Notes under the pieces: model-generated
Database searches by the model: none
The model's input: the letters and a program-made list of their open reading frames with translations, nothing else
What the model was told of the DNA's origin: nothing
In this document: piece by piece, positions 5,950-15,598 of the stretch
Position numbering within the stretch: position 1 is the stretch's first letter
Layout of the letters: each line of letters starts with the position of its first letter
Translations under genes and position numbers: made by a program
Assembly: GCF_900114545.1 (NCBI RefSeq)
Contig: NZ_FOTI01000034.1
Location: 1-32,172, forward strand
Direction of reading: 5' to 3'
DNA: 32,172 nucleotides
From: Halanaerobium salsuginis
GTDB lineage: Bacteria > Bacillota > Halanaerobiia > Halanaerobiales > Halanaerobiaceae

Positions 5950-6016
5950 AGAACTTATCTACTCCCTTCTTGTTTTTAATACTTTAAAAAAATGAAGCTT
6001 AAAAAGCTCCTATTCA

Positions 6017-6045
6017 ATTTTACAATATTTTAACCTTAAAAGCAA
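6017..6045 (-). promoter_or_regulatory. Promoter of the TAXI-TRAP operon
   Basis: On the minus strand TTGCTT (complement 6040-6045) and TAAAAT (complement 6017-6022) are separated by exactly 17 bases, a good vegetative sigma-factor spacing. It lies about 70 bases upstream of the binding-protein ATG. Confidence 0.55.
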
Positions 6046-6229
6046 GTTGCAGAATATTAGTTGGGAGGCTGAGAAGACCTGCATAATAGGATTACAGTAT
6101 ACTATGATTATAAAACTTAAATTATTAAATTTTTTCTAAATAGCCAGAATTTACAGTTAATTATTAAAAAGATTAAGCTGGTTTTAATATAAGGAATAAA
6201 AAATTTTTATAATTATATAACGTGAAAAC
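6046..6229. other. Intergenic spacer between divergent TAXI and hyd promoters
   Basis: No open frame with a ribosome binding site and no tRNA-like fold was seen. It contains GGCTGAGAAGACC near 6067-6079, which resembles part of a thi box but lacks the rest of a TPP riboswitch. The remainder is AT-rich. Confidence 0.4.
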
Positions 6230-6258
6230 TTGAACAAAGTTATCGTTTAGGATATAAT
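6230..6258 (+). promoter_or_regulatory. Promoter of the hydrogenase-maturation operon
   Basis: TTGAAC (6230-6235) and TATAAT (6253-6258) are separated by 17 bases, giving a near-consensus housekeeping promoter. Transcription would start near 6265, leaving an untranslated leader of about 180 bases before the first annotated gene at 6445. Confidence 0.75.
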
Positions 6259-6264
6259 TATTGT

Positions 6265-6444
6265 TAAGTTAATATCTGATCAGCCGGGCTAGCCTGTCTG
6301 AGAGGATAATGAATTATTACTTACCTGAATTTAAGGAAGAGGTTCTGCAAATTAGGGGAGGGATTTTTCTATGTTTAATTTATTGCAAATAATTAACTCC
6401 AGAACCTGACTAGTGAGAATTTTTTGATTTTGAGGAGGACCTTA
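6265..6444 (+). ncRNA. Long structured leader of the TM1266-hydG-hydE transcript (class unknown)
   Basis: The ~180-base leader contains an 8-bp pairing of AGGTTCTG (6340-6347) with CAGAACCT (6400-6407), the palindrome GGCTAGCC (6287-6294), and a CTGAGAGG...ACCTGA stretch (6298-6327) reminiscent of a thi box. It lacks the GGGGNGC, GACCC and CCAGCG parts of a TPP riboswitch. The 8-bp helix encloses a strong Shine-Dalgarno and a 12-codon open frame. I do not recognise a known riboswitch class. A T-run (6420-6425) follows the helix at a distance, so attenuation is possible but not shown. Confidence 0.35.
6371..6409 (+). CDS. Possible 12-residue leader peptide
   Basis: ATG 6371 reads MFNLLQIINSRT and stops at TGA 6407-6409. 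GGGGAGGG (6355-6362) lies 8 bases upstream, a stronger and better placed ribosome binding site than those of many real genes here. The frame sits wholly inside the AGGTTCTG/CAGAACCT helix of the hyd leader, and its stop codon overlaps the helix's 3' arm, so translating ribosomes would disrupt that helix. There is no run of a single amino acid as in classical attenuators. It could be chance in AT-rich DNA. Confidence 0.3.
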   Translation: MFNLLQIINSRT

Positions 6445-6708
6445 ATGAAAAAAAGAATCGGTGTAATTGGAATAGTTGTAACAGGTAGAGAAAAGGTGAG
6501 CGAGCAGATTAATAAGATATTAAGTAAGCATGCTGATAATATTATTGGGAGGATGGGAATTCCATCTGCTGAACATGGCCTTTCGCTTATTTCATTAATT
6601 GTTGAAGGCACTCCTGATGAAATTGGAGCGGTAACTGGCCAGCTTGGCAATTTGCCGGGAGTTACGCTTAAGTCTGCTCTAACATCAGTTGAAGTCGAGG
6701 CTGACTAG
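6445..6708 (+). CDS. TM1266-type iron-only hydrogenase system regulator (ACT/NikR-C-like)
   Basis: An 87-residue single-domain protein with a beta-alpha-beta-beta-alpha-beta pattern of ACT/NikR C-terminal-like folds: KKRIGVIGIVVTGRE, then SEQINKILSKHADNIIGRMG, then LSLISLIVEGTPDEIGAVTG and the closing VTLKSALTSV. Small proteins of this family (TM1266 is the structural representative) occur next to hydE, hydG and hydF and are annotated as putative hydrogenase-system regulators. No DNA-binding domain is present, so ligand sensing through a partner is more likely than direct regulation. The ATG at 6445 has GAGGAGG at 6432-6438, 6 bases upstream; an in-frame TTG at 6424 is rejected. First full gene of the hyd operon. 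Confidence 0.8.
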   Translation: MKKRIGVIGIVVTGREKVSEQINKILSKHADNIIGRMGIPSAEHGLSLISLIVEGTPDEIGAVTGQLGNLPGVTLKSALTSVEVEAD

Positions 6709-6771
6709 TTTAATTATTAAAAAATGATTTTGTTTAGTATTATTTTCGGGAGTTAATTTAAGGAGGCAATT

Positions 6772-8220
6772 ATGAGTACAGTAAATTATTATAAAGAAGA
6801 GTTTGGAGAAGATTATCGCACAGGAGTTTGTGATTATATAACAGATGAGAAAATAGAGAGCATATTAGCTGATGCTAAAAAGCCTGATCCAAAAGAGGTT
6901 AAGAGAATTATTGATAAATCATTAAAGCTGAAGGGAATTACTCCGTTAGAAGCGGCTACTTTACTGCAGGTTGAAGATGAAGCATTAATCGATGAGTTTT
7001 TAGAGGCAGCACGTCAAATAAAAGAAAAAATTTATGGTAAGCGCCTGGTTGTTTTTGCTCCTTTATATTTTGCTAATCAGTGTATTAACAATTGTGCCTA
7101 CTGTGGTTTCCGGAAAGATAATGAGCTTGTTCATCGCAAAAAGTTAACTCAGGCAGAGATAGCAAAAGAAGTAGAAGCAATCGAGAGAGAAGGTCATAAA
7201 AGACTTTTAGTCTTAACTGGAGAAGCTCCAAATACAGATCTTGATTATTTAATCGAAGGAATTGAAACTGCCTATAGTGTTAAGACAGAGCATGGAGGAG
7301 AAATTCGCCGGATCAATGTTGAAATAGCTCCTTTGAGTCGAGAAGATTTTAAAAAATTGAAGGCAGCTAAAATTGGTACTTATACCTGTTTTCAGGAAAC
7401 ATATAATCGAAAACAATATCAAAAATTACATCATTCTGGTCCAAAAACTAATTTTGAATGGCGGCTGTCAGTTATGGATAGAGCTCAGGATGCTGGAATT
7501 GATGATGTAGGTATTGGAGCCTTATTTGGTCTTTATGATTATAAATTCGATACAATTGGTATGCTGCTTCATGCTGAATATTTAGATCAAAAATATGGAG
7601 TTGGCCCTCATACTGTTTCAGTTCCCAGAATGAATCCAGCTGCAGGAACTCCTTTAGAAGAGATCCCTTACCCAGTTTCCGACGAAGATTTTCGTAAGTT
7701 AGTTGCTGTATTGAGGCTGGCTGTACCTTATACAGGTATGATCTTAAGCACCAGAGAAAGTGCTGAAATGCGCAATGAGCTTTTCGAACATGGAGTTTCA
7801 CAGGTTTCTGCTGGATCGCGAACAACTCCTGGCGGCTATGATCATAAAGGTGATAATAAAGAGGATTTAGCTCAATTTTCTCTGCATGATTTGCGACCTA
7901 TTGATGAAGTAATTACTGGAATTGCTAAAGATGGTTATATTCCAAGTTTCTGTACAGCCTGTTATCGGCTTGGTCGCACAGGTAAAGACTTTATGGATCT
8001 AGCCAAACCTGGTAAAATCCAGGAATTTTGTCGTCCCAATGCAATGCTGACTTTTAAAGAGTATCTGGAAGACTATGGAACTGAAATTAGTCGTAAATAT
8101 GGAGAAGAATGTCTCACTAATTTAATGGCTGATCTTAAAGCAGATAATCCCAAATTGGCCGCTAATATTGCTGATAAACTAGCAGCAATTGCGCAGGGAG
8201 AACATGACTTATATTTATAG
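6772..8220 (+). CDS. hydG: [FeFe]-hydrogenase H-cluster maturase HydG (tyrosine lyase)
   Basis: A 482-residue radical SAM enzyme. The SAM-cluster cysteines are C104, C108 and C111 in CINNCAYCGFRKDN. The auxiliary-cluster cysteines are C394, C397 and C420 in the CX2CX22C arrangement that is specific to HydG and absent from its relative ThiH. HydG cleaves tyrosine to supply CO and cyanide, forming an Fe(CO)2CN synthon for the H-cluster in the cytoplasm. It is followed 20 bases later by hydE. AAGGAGG lies just before ATG 6772. The length and both cluster motifs make the assignment firm; HydF and the hydrogenase must be elsewhere. Confidence 0.97.
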   Translation: MSTVNYYKEEFGEDYRTGVCDYITDEKIESILADAKKPDPKEVKRIIDKSLKLKGITPLEAATLLQVEDEALIDEFLEAARQIKEKIYGKRLVVFAPLYFANQCINNCAYCGFRKDNELVHRKKLTQAEIAKEVEAIEREGHKRLLVLTGEAPNTDLDYLIEGIETAYSVKTEHGGEIRRINVEIAPLSREDFKKLKAAKIGTYTCFQETYNRKQYQKLHHSGPKTNFEWRLSVMDRAQDAGIDDVGIGALFGLYDYKFDTIGMLLHAEYLDQKYGVGPHTVSVPRMNPAAGTPLEEIPYPVSDEDFRKLVAVLRLAVPYTGMILSTRESAEMRNELFEHGVSQVSAGSRTTPGGYDHKGDNKEDLAQFSLHDLRPIDEVITGIAKDGYIPSFCTACYRLGRTGKDFMDLAKPGKIQEFCRPNAMLTFKEYLEDYGTEISRKYGEECLTNLMADLKADNPKLAANIADKLAAIAQGEHDLYL

Positions 8221-8240: not shown

Positions 8241-9302
8241 GTGAATAAATTTGAAATAAAAAGGCTTGTTGACCAGGCTTTTCAAACTGCTAGCTTAACA
8301 GCAAAAGAAATTACAGCTTTATTAGCTATTGATTTGACTGAGCTTGATTACTTGCTTGAAGCTGCTGATCGGAAAAGATCCGAAATTTGTGGAGAAGAAG
8401 TCCATCTGAGAGCTATTATTGAATTCTCCAGTTATTGCAAACAAAATTGTCACTATTGTGGTTTGCGCAAAGATAATCAAGCATTAAAGCGTTATCAACT
8501 GCAGAAAAGTGAAATTATAGAAACAGCGGTTATGGCTGCTCAGCTTGGTTATCAAACTGTAGTTTTACAATCAGGAGAAGATGAACATTCTGCAGCAGAA
8601 ATAGCCGCTATTATTCGGTCTATTAAAACTAAAACAGATCTGGCAATTACGCTTAGCCTCGGGGAAAGGGAGCTTAGTGAGTATAAGCTCTGGCGAGAAG
8701 CAGGAGCAGATCGTTATCTTTTAAAACATGAAATTGCTGATCAAAGTTTATACAGCGATTATCATCCCGGGATGAGTTTTACTAATCGAATTAACTGTCT
8801 TAAAGAGCTCAAAAAAATGGGGTACCAGATCGGTAGTGGTGTAATTATTGATTTACCAGGTCAGACTCCTGAAATTTTGGCTAGAGACTTGTTATTATGC
8901 CAGGAACTTGAACTTGATATGCTTGGTTCAGGACCTTTTATTCCCCATCCCGAAACACCATTAAAAAATAGTAAACAGGGAACAGTAGCAATGACACTTA
9001 AATTCACTGCTCTGAGCAGATTATTATTACCATTTGCCCATATTCCAGCAACAACTGCTCTCGGGACAATTGATGTTGAAGGTCGACAAAAAGCTCTGCA
9101 GGCAGGTGCCAATGTAGTTATGCCTAATGTTACTCAGGGTAAATATCGGGAACAATATCAAATTTATCCTGATAAGATTTGTGTTAATGAAGAAGCAGGA
9201 GATTGTAGGCAGTGTATTGGAGGGATTATTAATTCTCTGGGCAGATTTGTTAGTACAGATCATGGTCATAGTATGCGGAAAGAGTTTGTAAAGCTAGATT
9301 AA
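8241..9302 (+). CDS. hydE: [FeFe]-hydrogenase H-cluster maturase HydE
   Basis: A 353-residue radical SAM protein with the SAM-cluster motif CKQNCHYC (C66, C70, C73) and a second, non-essential cluster motif CX7CX2C at C314, C322 and C325, both as in Thermotoga HydE. Family work assigns HydE the conversion of the HydG iron product toward the bridging dithiolate of the H-cluster. The start is GTG 8241 with AGAGGTG about 6 bases upstream. It ends the hyd operon; a strong terminator follows at 9367-9414. BioB and PylB are relatives, but the hydG neighbour and cluster motifs favour HydE. Confidence 0.95.
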   Translation: MNKFEIKRLVDQAFQTASLTAKEITALLAIDLTELDYLLEAADRKRSEICGEEVHLRAIIEFSSYCKQNCHYCGLRKDNQALKRYQLQKSEIIETAVMAAQLGYQTVVLQSGEDEHSAAEIAAIIRSIKTKTDLAITLSLGERELSEYKLWREAGADRYLLKHEIADQSLYSDYHPGMSFTNRINCLKELKKMGYQIGSGVIIDLPGQTPEILARDLLLCQELELDMLGSGPFIPHPETPLKNSKQGTVAMTLKFTALSRLLLPFAHIPATTALGTIDVEGRQKALQAGANVVMPNVTQGKYREQYQIYPDKICVNEEAGDCRQCIGGIINSLGRFVSTDHGHSMRKEFVKLD

Positions 9303-13470: not shown

Positions 13471-13509
13471 ACCCTCCGGTTTGTTCCTTACAAATCAGGA
13501 GGGTTTTTT
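13471..13509 (+). terminator. Riboswitch-controlled terminator that also holds the thiT ribosome binding site
   Basis: ACCCTCC (13471-13477) pairs with GGAGGGT (13498-13504), extended by TTTGT/ACAAA around a TCCTT loop, followed by six T's. The 3' arm GGAGG is also the ribosome binding site of thiT, 8 bases before ATG 13511. The hairpin would therefore both terminate transcription and hide the Shine-Dalgarno. Confidence 0.85.
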
Positions 13510-13510
13510 A

Positions 13511-14044
13511 ATGGATAATAAAATTTCTACTAGAATGATGGCTGAAATAGGAGTTGCAGTGGCTCTGGCTGTTGTGTTAAATTTTATTAAATTATGGAGG
13601 ATGCCGCAGGGAGGATCAGTTAGTTTAGAAATGCTGCCCATATTTATTGTTACATTCCGCTGGGGAATAGGAGCTGGCATGTTCAGTGGACTTGCTTATG
13701 GTCTGCTGCAGTTAATGTTTGGGGCTTATATTATTCATCCTGTACAGTTGATTCTGGATTATCCGCTTCCTTATATGATTTTAGGTATTGCTGGTTTATT
13801 TAATATTTATAAGTCTGGTAAAATAAGTTCAGTAAAACTTTTAGGGGCAGTTTTAACAGCTGGTTTAGCACGTTTAGTTGTTCATGTTTTATCAGGAGTA
13901 ATCTTTTTTAGTAGTTATGCTCCAGAAGGTCAGAATGTCTGGATTTATTCTATAATTTATAATGCAAGCTTTTTAATTCCAACAATTATTGTAAACTACC
14001 TTGCAGTCTTAATTGTCATTAAGGCATTGGAAAATAATAATTAG
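13511..14044 (+). CDS. thiT: Thiamine ECF transporter S-component ThiT
   Basis: A 177-residue membrane protein with six hydrophobic segments. It matches ThiT (YuaJ) through MPQGGSVSLEMLPI near residues 31-44, the glycine-rich GIGAGMFSGLAYGLLQLMFG, and IHPVQLILDYPLPY near 77-90; these line the thiamine pocket in known structures. ThiT captures thiamine and needs a shared ECF energising module (EcfA, EcfA', EcfT), which is not in this window. It is a one-gene unit preceded by its own TPP riboswitch and followed directly by the second riboswitch. I start at ATG 13511; a TTG at 13481 lies inside the terminator hairpin and is not plausible. Confidence 0.93.
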   Translation: MDNKISTRMMAEIGVAVALAVVLNFIKLWRMPQGGSVSLEMLPIFIVTFRWGIGAGMFSGLAYGLLQLMFGAYIIHPVQLILDYPLPYMILGIAGLFNIYKSGKISSVKLLGAVLTAGLARLVVHVLSGVIFFSSYAPEGQNVWIYSIIYNASFLIPTIIVNYLAVLIVIKALENNN

Positions 14045-14073
14045 CTTGCTGTAAAATTTATAATTTAATATTT

Positions 14074-14160
14074 ATCACAGGGGAGCTATCTGGCTGAGAA
14101 AAAGTTAATTACTTTGACCCTTTAACCTGATCTGGATAATACCAGCGGAGGAAAGTGTAT
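14074..14160 (+). promoter_or_regulatory. TPP riboswitch (thi box) upstream of thiC
   Basis: A second full aptamer: AGGGGAGC, GGCTGAGAAA, an AGTTAATTACT arm, GACCC, AACCTGATC, TGGATAATACCAGCG and GAGG. It lies 30 bases after the thiT stop codon and some 60 bases before a strong terminator, so it controls the thiC-thiW-thiD-thiEM operon separately from thiT. Confidence 0.96.
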
Positions 14161-14221
14161 AGTTTAGCAGTTTAATTAACTAGCTTATTAGTTGCAGATT
14201 TGTTAGTTATTTAAAAACTGC

Positions 14222-14314: not shown

Positions 14315-15598
14315 ATGACTCAAATAACTCAGGCAAGAATAGGAAAAATAACAGCAGAAATGGAGAAAGCTGCTAGTTTAGAAAGTGTTAAACCAGAATT
14401 TATTAGACAGGGCATAGCGGAGGGGACTATTGTTATTCCGGCAAACATTAATCACAATCAGCTGCAGGCCCGGGCTTTTGGTAAAGGTCTAACGACTAAA
14501 GTTAATGCTAATTTTGGTACCTCAGAAGATTATGATCAGATTGAAAAAGAATTGAAAAAATTAAAAATAGCTCAAAATGCTGGTGCAGATGCAATAATGG
14601 ATCTTTCGACTGGAAGTAAAATTAAGCTTACCCGCCAGAAAATATTAGCAGCAGCTCAGCTGCCAGTTGGTACAGTACCAATTTATCAAGCTGCAGTTAA
14701 AACTATTGAATCAGGACGCAGTATTGTAGAGATGACAGTTGATGAGCTATTTGCAGTAATTGAAGAACAGGCAGTAGCTGGAGTTGATTTTATTACAGTC
14801 CATTGTGGTTTAACTCTAGAGACTCTTCGCCATTTAAAAGCTGAAGGTCGAGTAACAGATATAGTGAGCCGGGGTGGTTCTTTTATGGCTGCCTGGATGC
14901 TGCATAATGAACAAGAAAATCCACTTTATCAATATTATGAGAGACTGTTAGAAATTTGTTTTAAATATGATGTAACTCTAAGTCTGGGAGATGGACTTAG
15001 ACCAGGCTCACTGGCTGATGCAACTGATCGAGCTCAAATCCATGAGTTACTAATTTTAGCTGAGCTGGTTGATCAGGCTAGAGCAGCTGAAGTTCAGGTT
15101 ATGGTTGAAGGACCAGGTCATGTTCCTTTTGATCAGATTGAAACAAATATTAAATTGCAAAAAGAATTATGTAAAGATGCGCCATTTTATGTATTAGGAC
15201 CTTTAGTTACAGACATTGCACCAGGCTATGATCATATAACAGCGGCAATTGGCGGTACCCTGGCTGCAGCAGCAGGTGCTGACTTTCTTTGCTATGTTAC
15301 TCCAGCTGAGCATATAGGTTTACCTGATTTAGAAGATGTTAAAGCAGGTGTTATTGCCAGTAAAATAGCAGCTCATGCAGCTGATATTGCTAAAGGCGTT
15401 CCAGGTGCAAAAGCAAGAGATCGGGAAATGGCAGTAGCCAGGAAAAATCTTGATTGGGAAAAACAGATTGAATTAGCTATTGATCCAGCTAAATTAAAAA
15501 AATCACGAGCTGAACATAACCAAACTCTTAAAGAAACTACCGCTTGTACAATGTGTGGCTCTTATTGTGCCATGAAAATAGTTGCAGCAGAATTATAG
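14315..15598 (+). CDS. thiC: Phosphomethylpyrimidine synthase ThiC
   Basis: A 427-residue radical SAM enzyme that turns aminoimidazole ribotide into HMP phosphate, the pyrimidine half of thiamine. Family marks include [25 protein letters not shown] near residues 89-100, [41 protein letters not shown] and the C-terminal cluster motif CTMCGSYC (C411, C414, C418). That spacing is CX2CX3C, one residue shorter than the CX2CX4C of E. coli ThiC, as in other short anaerobe-type ThiC proteins. The length of ~430 also fits the anaerobe form without the ~180-residue N-terminal extension. AAAGGAG lies 10 bases before ATG. First gene of the operon. Confidence 0.97.

What the first reader, a model, noticed from the sequence alone, without database searches (positions are those of the whole stretch)
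6265..6444. Unclassified structured leader before the hydrogenase-maturation genes
A near-consensus promoter lies ~180 bases upstream of the first hyd gene. The leader has an 8-bp long-range helix, a palindrome and a thi-box-like CTGAGAGG...ACCTGA stretch without the other TPP elements. HydG and HydE consume SAM, tyrosine and iron, so a metabolite or iron sensor would make sense.
Basis: partly seen in the sequence, partly recalled or inferred. Interest (0 to 1): 0.55.

Follow-up and report, generated by a model that had tools for sequence, protein, structure and literature searches.

The report
Unlisted RNA switch before hydrogenase-maturation genes
The RNA leader in front of these hydrogenase-assembly genes belongs to a conserved, two-hairpin regulatory RNA family that is not in the RNA-family library searched, sits before the same genes in many bacteria, and seems to come only with a small regulator protein (TM1266) of unknown function.

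Summary
The leader is real, structured and unclassified. Alone it looks unremarkable: its fold is no better than shuffles and an 8-bp helix occurs in 24 of 150 shuffles. Relatives settle it. A ~97-nt element (6268-6364) is conserved between poorly conserved flanks and folds into two hairpins with heavy compensatory change. No Rfam match.

A model scores at E<=0.003 in 100 of 398 genomes of the phylum. Of 41 places read outside the order, 40 precede TM1266, hydG or hydE; some hydF genes and ABC transporters also carry it. In Spirochaetes, Acidobacteriota and Delongbacteria it covers the TM1266 start codon.

A terminator follows in 57 of 79 rows and can pair with the element's 3' strand: an attenuator.

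Among HydG genomes the element occurs in 93 of 181 with TM1266 and 0 of 33 without. TM1266 is my preferred partner; a metabolite riboswitch remains open. Binding and expression are untested.

The parts
6222..6258 (+). Conserved promoter: GTGAAAACTTGAACAAAG (6222-6239), containing the -35 TTGAAC (6230-6235), and the -10 TATAAT (6253-6258)
6274..6307 (+). Hairpin A: AUCU 6274-6277 / GGAU 6304-6307; 2x2 loop GA/GA; UCAG 6280-6283 / CUGA 6298-6301; C.U mismatch; CGG 6285-6287 / CUG 6294-6296
   Evidence: RNAalifold on a MAFFT alignment, pair counts; predicted probability of the pair tested about 1.0 in the window sequence
6321..6360 (+). Hairpin BC: outer 6321-6326 / 6355-6360 (A6323 and G6358 mismatched), loop, middle 6329-6332 / 6349-6352, loop, inner 6335-6337 / 6344-6346
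   Evidence: Columns of the alignment. Inner pair P 0.97 in prefixes ending at 6364 and 6375 (where the outer helix was tested in the neighbouring register CCU 6324-6326 / AGG 6354-6356)
6340..6347 (+).
6400..6407 (+). 3' arm of the 8-bp helix, in the spacer where many relatives carry a terminator
6420..6425 (+). Run of six U; the hairpin before it is only -0.7 kcal/mol, so not a convincing terminator
6432..6438 (+). Shine-Dalgarno sequence GAGGAGG of TM1266
   Evidence: read from the sequence
6445..6708 (+). TM1266-family gene (ACT-like putative regulator), first gene after the leader
   Evidence: TIGR03959 99.8 bits, PF21699 99.4 bits; solved homologue 2NZC, 'Hypothetical protein'
6772..8220 (+). 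hydG
   Evidence: TIGR03955 532.5 bits
8241..9302 (+). hydE
   Evidence: TIGR03956 369.4 bits

Best explanation
The leader is a cis-acting attenuator RNA for [FeFe]-hydrogenase (H-cluster) maturation genes. It is a two-hairpin element, A and BC, with three internal loops that are mostly 2x2 purine loops, followed in most members by an intrinsic terminator. When BC is held together its 3' strand cannot reach the terminator's 5' arm, the terminator forms, and the operon is off. When BC is not held, that strand pairs with the terminator arm and the operon is on. In members where the element lies on the ribosome-binding site or start codon, holding BC would hide those instead, again off. What holds BC is most likely the TM1266 protein, so the system would be feedback control of the maturation genes by a small ACT-like RNA-binding regulator. 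Shown by computation: the conserved fold, the gene association, the terminators and competing pairings, and the co-occurrence with TM1266. Inferred: direction of control, RNA binding, TM1266 as binder, and any ligand. Sub-estimates: conserved structured cis-regulatory element 0.97; attenuation or start-site occlusion 0.8; TM1266 as trans-acting partner 0.5.
For: Fold: found de novo by RNAalifold on a MAFFT alignment of 15 leaders. On 78 distinct rows 90.2% of cells pair, with 404 both-side changes against 130.5 +- 13.7 in shuffles (0 of 500) and at most 131 in slid controls (that alignment was fitted to the structure). Conservation: element 63.9% mean identity to 13 relatives, flanks 28-29%. 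Gene association: 33 TM1266-first, 4 hydG-first, 3 hydE-first and 1 permease-like-first of 41 places; hydF-first in L040/L057, L051/L052, L053 and L285, L287, L289. Platform: terminator in 57 of 79 rows against 12 of 78 control stretches; pairing of the element's 3' end with its own terminator arm -14.2 against -11.4 kcal/mol for mismatched pairs, permutation p 5e-5, 49 distinct terminators.
Against: The window copy has no convincing terminator, and in this scan neither do L002, L004, L006, L007, L008 of the same genus, so their expression platform is unknown. Shared ancestry is only partly controlled: families f8, f13 and f76 each hold both TM1266+/element+ and TM1266-/element- genomes, but the models were trained on loci from TM1266+ genomes. 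TM1266 occurs without a detected element in 108 of 206 genomes, and upstreams of TM1266 in 10 HydG-negative genomes gave only one weak match, E 0.071. The hydF upstreams L055, L056 (own genome), L058, L059 and L060 in the genus show no element by eye. No ACT-domain protein that binds such an RNA is known to me (recall).
Confidence: 0.5

Rival explanations
1. A metabolite or metal riboswitch: the two-hairpin element itself binds a small ligand tied to H-cluster assembly (for example an iron, cysteine, tyrosine or SAM-derived species, or a maturation intermediate) and turns the maturation genes off.
For: Copies before hydF, hydG and hydE without TM1266 in between, deep conservation, terminator and start-codon platforms. 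ABC transporters directly after the element (L277, L286, L288, by eye) or after TM1266 (L177, L192) and an ECF-like component after TM1266 (L165, L171 by Pfam below its cut-off, L166 by eye) are typical of riboswitch regulons (recall).
Against: Not detected in any of the 33 HydG genomes without TM1266. Architecture is two hairpins with repeated purine loops and no junction found. In G322 and G424 the element occurs with TM1266 but HydG and HydE were not found.
Confidence: 0.35
2. The element is a binding site for some other trans-acting factor (a different RNA-binding protein, or an antisense RNA), with TM1266 merely co-inherited in the same operons.
For: Most elements lie next to TM1266, so co-inheritance is expected (33 of 41).
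Against: Elements on another contig or far from TM1266 (G076, G414, G307, G277, G323) still lie in genomes that have it (19 of 19 genomes tested).
Confidence: 0.1
3. A TPP or other known riboswitch, as the thi-box-like letters suggest.
For: CTGAGAGG and ACCTGA strings in 6298-6328.
Against: No Rfam family at E<=5 on the leader, E<=3 on 19 Halanaerobiales loci (two matches, CRISPR-DR2 and SCARNA8, both away from the element) or E<=2 on 19 further loci.
Confidence: 0.01
4. Conserved DNA rather than RNA: promoter and operator spacing only.
For: A conserved palindromic promoter lies immediately upstream.
Against: Changes on both sides in 20 of 24 pairs (15.8 +- 1.4 in shuffles, 3 of 500 reach 20) and 404 such cells; the element overlaps the translated start in other phyla.
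Confidence: 0.02

Closest known systems
Protein-dependent attenuators such as PyrR/pyr leaders, TRAP/trp, BglG-type RAT and ANTAR tandem hairpins (recalled)
   Same: Short hairpins ahead of a terminator, with a regulator that decides between terminator and antiterminator; regulator gene often in the controlled operon
   Different: Different hairpins and loops (three mostly RA/RA 2x2 loops), different genes, and the proposed regulator is an ACT-like protein
Metabolite riboswitches with terminators, e.g. TPP (RF00059) or Moco/Wco RNA
   Same: Conserved 5' leader, terminator or ribosome-site platform, biosynthesis and transporter genes downstream; tandem Wco riboswitches are reported before some hydrogenase genes (PMC9481103, one passage seen)
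   Different: No Rfam match; no ligand shown; tied to presence of TM1266
TM1266 family (TIGR03959, PF21699, PDB 2NZC)
   Same: The window gene is a member
   Different: Annotated only as a putative regulator; solved homologue is 'Hypothetical protein'; no RNA role found in my searches (listings only)

Membership tests
TPP riboswitch RF00059 | Match to the Rfam covariance model | tested here: not met
   No match at E<=5 on 5950-6800, while the true TPP riboswitch at 14069-14171 scores 65.8 bits
Any of the 4227 Rfam 15 families | Match to a family model at the element | tested here: not met
   Searches (E<=5; E<=3; E<=2): the window leader and 38 relatives' loci, not all of which carry the element
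Attenuator with intrinsic terminator | Terminator between element and gene, competing with the element | tested here: met
   For the family: 57 of 79 rows against 12 of 78 controls, pairing test p 5e-5. For the window copy itself: not met, no terminator found
ANTAR-type tandem hairpins (features recalled) | Two tandem stem-loops with six-base loops | tested here: not met
   Nested hairpin BC pairs 93.0% with 166 both-side changes; two tandem hairpins in its place, columns chosen by me, pair 77.5% with 22 (on an alignment fitted to the nested fold); de novo RNAalifold also gives the nested fold. Loop sizes were not tested as such
Riboswitch | Conserved covarying structure in a 5' leader | tested here: met
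Riboswitch | Direct binding of a small ligand that changes expression | not testable with these tools
   Needs probing and reporter work
TM1266-dependent attenuator (proposed here) | TM1266 present wherever the element is | tested here: met
   98 of 100 genomes at E<=0.003, the matches of the two exceptions lying inside other ORFs; 87 of 87 at E<=5e-4
TM1266-dependent attenuator (proposed here) | TM1266 binds the RNA | not testable with these tools
   Needs gel shift or footprinting

The most novel reading that the evidence does not exclude
TM1266, a protein family known only as a putative hydrogenase regulator, is an ACT-like RNA-binding protein that grips a two-hairpin leader with three tandem purine loops and thereby shuts off hydE, hydF, hydG, its own gene and associated transporters, by terminator formation in Bacillota and by covering its own start codon in Spirochaetes and other phyla: one RNA regulon for building the hydrogenase active site.
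Probability: 0.42. Interest if true: 0.9.

Novelty: new variant of a known kind. Interest (0 to 1): 0.8.

Why it matters
To my knowledge control of H-cluster assembly is poorly understood. If true, one RNA family links the three maturases HydE, HydF and HydG into a regulon across several phyla, gives TM1266 a testable job, and points to a handle for controlling biological hydrogen production. The element also marks transporters (an ABC system, and an ECF-like component in the same operon) that may carry something the pathway needs or senses.

Tried and rejected
Single-sequence folding and the 8-bp helix as evidence of structure: not significant. TPP and all other Rfam families: no match at the element. 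My first reading of the 3' part as two tandem hairpins (B and C): rejected for one nested hairpin. Weak R1 matches L041, L042, L044-L050: mostly inside or overlapping ORFs, several of them a topoisomerase subunit (recognised by eye); treated as chance. R3 matches L290, L293, L294 inside other ORFs and L284 before an unknown ORF: not counted as members. Leader peptide: an SD and AUG follow the element in several Halanaerobium copies, but the short frames differ in sequence and length; not pursued. hydF in the window's own genome (L056): no element seen in the 420 bases upstream, and the genome has one match in all. TM1266 genomes without HydG: 10 upstreams, one match at E 0.071. Named TM1266 loci: by my count about half of the 80 gave a match at E<=0.1 in one or other search; not every locus was scanned with every model. 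Phage collection: no match. Literature: searches with hydrogenase/riboswitch/hydG/RNA motif, TM1266, noncoding RNA + riboswitch candidate + hydrogenase maturation, structured noncoding RNA + riboswitch candidates + hydrogenase, genome-scale ncRNA surveys, candidate structured RNAs, HydE/HydF/HydG + riboswitch, hydrogenase maturation + transcription attenuation and 'iron-only hydrogenase system regulator' listed nothing whose title or shown abstract describes this RNA. In three surveys (PMC11109978, PMC8632094, PMC6429828) I saw only search passages: 'hydrogenase' occurs 0 times in their main texts; supplements could not be read, so prior listing there is possible. PMC9481103 and PMC3543383: passages only; the riboswitches named in the latter's passages are for molybdenum cofactor and cobalamin. 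The other listed papers were not opened.

Limits: models R2 and R3 were trained on loci found by the preceding model, and A3 and A5 are fitted to the structure; the window leader was in every training set. In the R3 locus test 5 of the 13 TM1266+ matches (L234, L238, L242, L243, L245) had been in its training set; with R2, which had not seen them, the figures are 9 of 20 at E<=0.08 against 0 of 20 at E<=1. Of the nine matches in other phyla five loci (L106, L129, L138, L149, L150) were in R3's training set and four (L111, L118, L119, L124) were not. The 79 rows of A5 hold one locus twice (L097 = L164). About 1 chance genome is expected among 398 at E<=0.003. Handle lists were copied by hand. 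For the locus test only the 20 TM1266-negative hydG places printed, of 33 such genomes, could be fetched; three of these stretches are shorter than 3 kb.

Full report
What is there. The leader at 6265-6444 precedes TM1266 (6445-6708), hydG (6772-8220) and hydE (8241-9302), identified by NCBIfam and Pfam. No Rfam family matches at E<=5.

Relatives. TM1266 was found in 23 of 38 genomes of the order. Many of the upstream regions share a promoter and a ~97-nt element. Against 13 relatives the element averages 63.9% identity, the spacer to the gene 28.3%, the stretch upstream of the promoter 29.1%, and the first 97 bases of the gene 69.5%. L005/L043 is an exception in the genus: its hairpin A region is replaced, with only the 3' part left. 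L018 gave no match and shows no recognisable copy, L023 gave no match, and L019-L022 match weakly (E 0.011-0.26) and show by eye only the second hairpin.

Structure. RNAalifold on a MAFFT alignment of 15 leaders gave hairpin A and one nested hairpin BC, 24 pairs, 9 with compensatory changes (counts: 96.7% paired, 26 both-side cells against 7.5 +- 2.4). Extended to 38 rows: 92.3%, 145 against 50.8 +- 5.6. To 79 rows, 78 distinct: 90.2%, 404 against 130.5 +- 13.7, covariation 0.577 against 0.206, slid versions at most 0.140. The last two alignments were fitted to the structure. The three internal loops are mostly 2x2 with RA/RA letters (GA or AA on both sides): 46, 45 and 59 of 78 rows for hairpin A, BC outer and BC inner loop, summed from the joint counts (for example GA/GA 23 and GA/AA 14 in A; AA/GA 35 and GA/GA 19 in BC inner).

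Where it occurs. Model R1 found it in 21 of 38 genomes of the order at E<=0.1, several of the weak matches lying in ORFs. In L038 it lies between TM1266 and hydG; in L040 and L051 it precedes hydF, as in L053; five other hydF upstreams in the genus show none by eye. Among named TM1266 loci R1 matched 13 Desulfosporosinus records and Desulforamulus, Desulfotomaculum and HGW-Firmicutes records. Model R2 gave 46 of 398 genomes of the phylum at E<=0.001, 47 places. Six are in the order; I read the other 41: 33 TM1266-first, 4 hydG-first, 3 hydE-first, and L175, at a contig end, before a fragment that looks like an ABC permease by eye but has no Pfam match. Model R3 gave 100 of 398 at E<=0.003. Twenty chosen places, picked because most were not beside TM1266, gave hydG 6, hydF 3, hydE 1, TM1266 2, an ABC transporter (by eye) 3, hydF beyond a transposase-like ORF (by eye) 1, an unknown ORF 1, and 3 inside other ORFs; the remaining R3 places were not read one by one. 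No copy was seen directly before a hydrogenase structural gene among the places read, but I did not search hydrogenase upstreams as such.

Other phyla. In Spirochaetes (including Treponema and Brevinematales), Acidobacteriota and Delongbacteria records the BC hairpin covers the ribosome-binding site and start codon of TM1266. R3 matched 9 of 12 such genomes, and all nine best places fall on the TM1266 starts by coordinates; five of these loci had been in its training set. Two further weak matches (E 0.088, 0.192) were not examined, and the Synergistaceae and two Bacteroidales genomes gave no match. Bacteroidales show a similar string by eye only. Because the start region encodes conserved Met-Glu-Lys-Arg, conservation of the 3' strand there is partly coding.

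Mechanism. A terminator lies within 260 bases 3' of the element in 57 of 79 rows (one locus counted twice), beginning 8-51 bases after it; one, in L150, lies inside the TM1266 coding sequence. Control stretches upstream gave 12 of 78. The element's last 34 bases pair better with their own terminator arm than with others' (-14.2 against -11.4 kcal/mol, p 5e-5 by permutation over 49 distinct terminators, relatedness not corrected; several individual members rank poorly). So a formed BC hairpin should favour termination. In the window, folding of growing prefixes predicts that BC forms (inner pair P 0.97 at 6364), then is displaced by the 8-bp helix once 6408 is made (P 0.915); in the full 6265-6460 sequence the 8-bp helix has P 0.80 and BC 0.14-0.16. 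The energies are -41.6 and -39.6 kcal/mol (BC outer helix in the register given under parts). In prefixes ending at 6426 and 6444 the 8-bp helix is itself disfavoured (0.16, 0.11) and BC stays low (0.05-0.07), so the prediction is unstable. The window has no convincing terminator, so how its copy acts is open.

The partner. In 398 genomes of the phylum HydG (E<=1e-70) is present in 214 and TM1266 (E<=1e-12) in 206, both in 181. The element at E<=0.003 is in 93 of the 181 and 0 of the 33 with HydG but no TM1266 (Fisher p 7e-10, not corrected for ancestry); at E<=5e-4, 83 and 0. The two matches in genomes without TM1266 (G084, G427) lie inside ORFs. In 20 of the 33 TM1266-free genomes, about 3 kb upstream of hydG (three stretches shorter) holds no match at E<=1, while 13 of 20 random TM1266+ genomes that R2 had scored negative genome-wide do, at E<=0.021 (with R2 on the same stretches 9 of 20 at E<=0.08). 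G322 and G424, of one genus, have TM1266 and the element before TM1266 and an NMT1/SsuA-like ABC transporter, without HydG or HydE at the thresholds used. TM1266 is ACT-like by Pfam (PF22629, below its cut-off) and its solved homologue 2NZC is unnamed. I therefore prefer TM1266 as the RNA's partner, at about one half, over a small-molecule riboswitch at about one third.

Novelty. No description was found in Rfam 15 or in the open papers searched (listings and passages only); subscription papers and supplements were not available.

Noticed in passing
14069-14171: A genuine TPP riboswitch (RF00059, 65.8 bits) between ThiT (13481-14044) and ThiC (14315-15598).
   Followed up: partly
6222-6239: The promoter's -35 region is a conserved imperfect palindrome (TTTTGTGAATACTTGCACAAAA in L016), resembling Rex or CRP/FNR sites (recalled consensus); similar letters precede some hydF genes.
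   Followed up: no
L003, L006, L007, L008, L010 spacer between element and TM1266: A palindromic repeat (about GGTACCAGGTACAAAAAGGCCTTTTTGTACCTGGTA) sits where other members carry the terminator; it may be an inserted repeat element.
   Followed up: no
L177, L192, L175, L277, L286, L288: The element, directly or through TM1266, precedes an ABC transporter (NMT1/SsuA-like by family search in L177, by eye in the others) whose substrate is unknown; L165, L166 and L171 have an ECF-like component after TM1266.
   Followed up: partly
L056 (own genome, contig 35): The window genome's hydF stands alone, away from hydG/hydE, with no element seen in 420 bases upstream, unlike hydF in G007, G011 and G018.
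   Followed up: partly
L283: An element is separated from hydF by a transposase-like ORF (recognised by eye).
   Followed up: no
6371-6409: An SD-like run and AUG (6371) follow the element and open a 12-codon frame ending TGA at 6407-6409; other short frames of different sequence occur in congeners.
   Followed up: no
L014 3110-3139: A CRISPR direct repeat (RF01315) near the hyd locus of G020.
   Followed up: no
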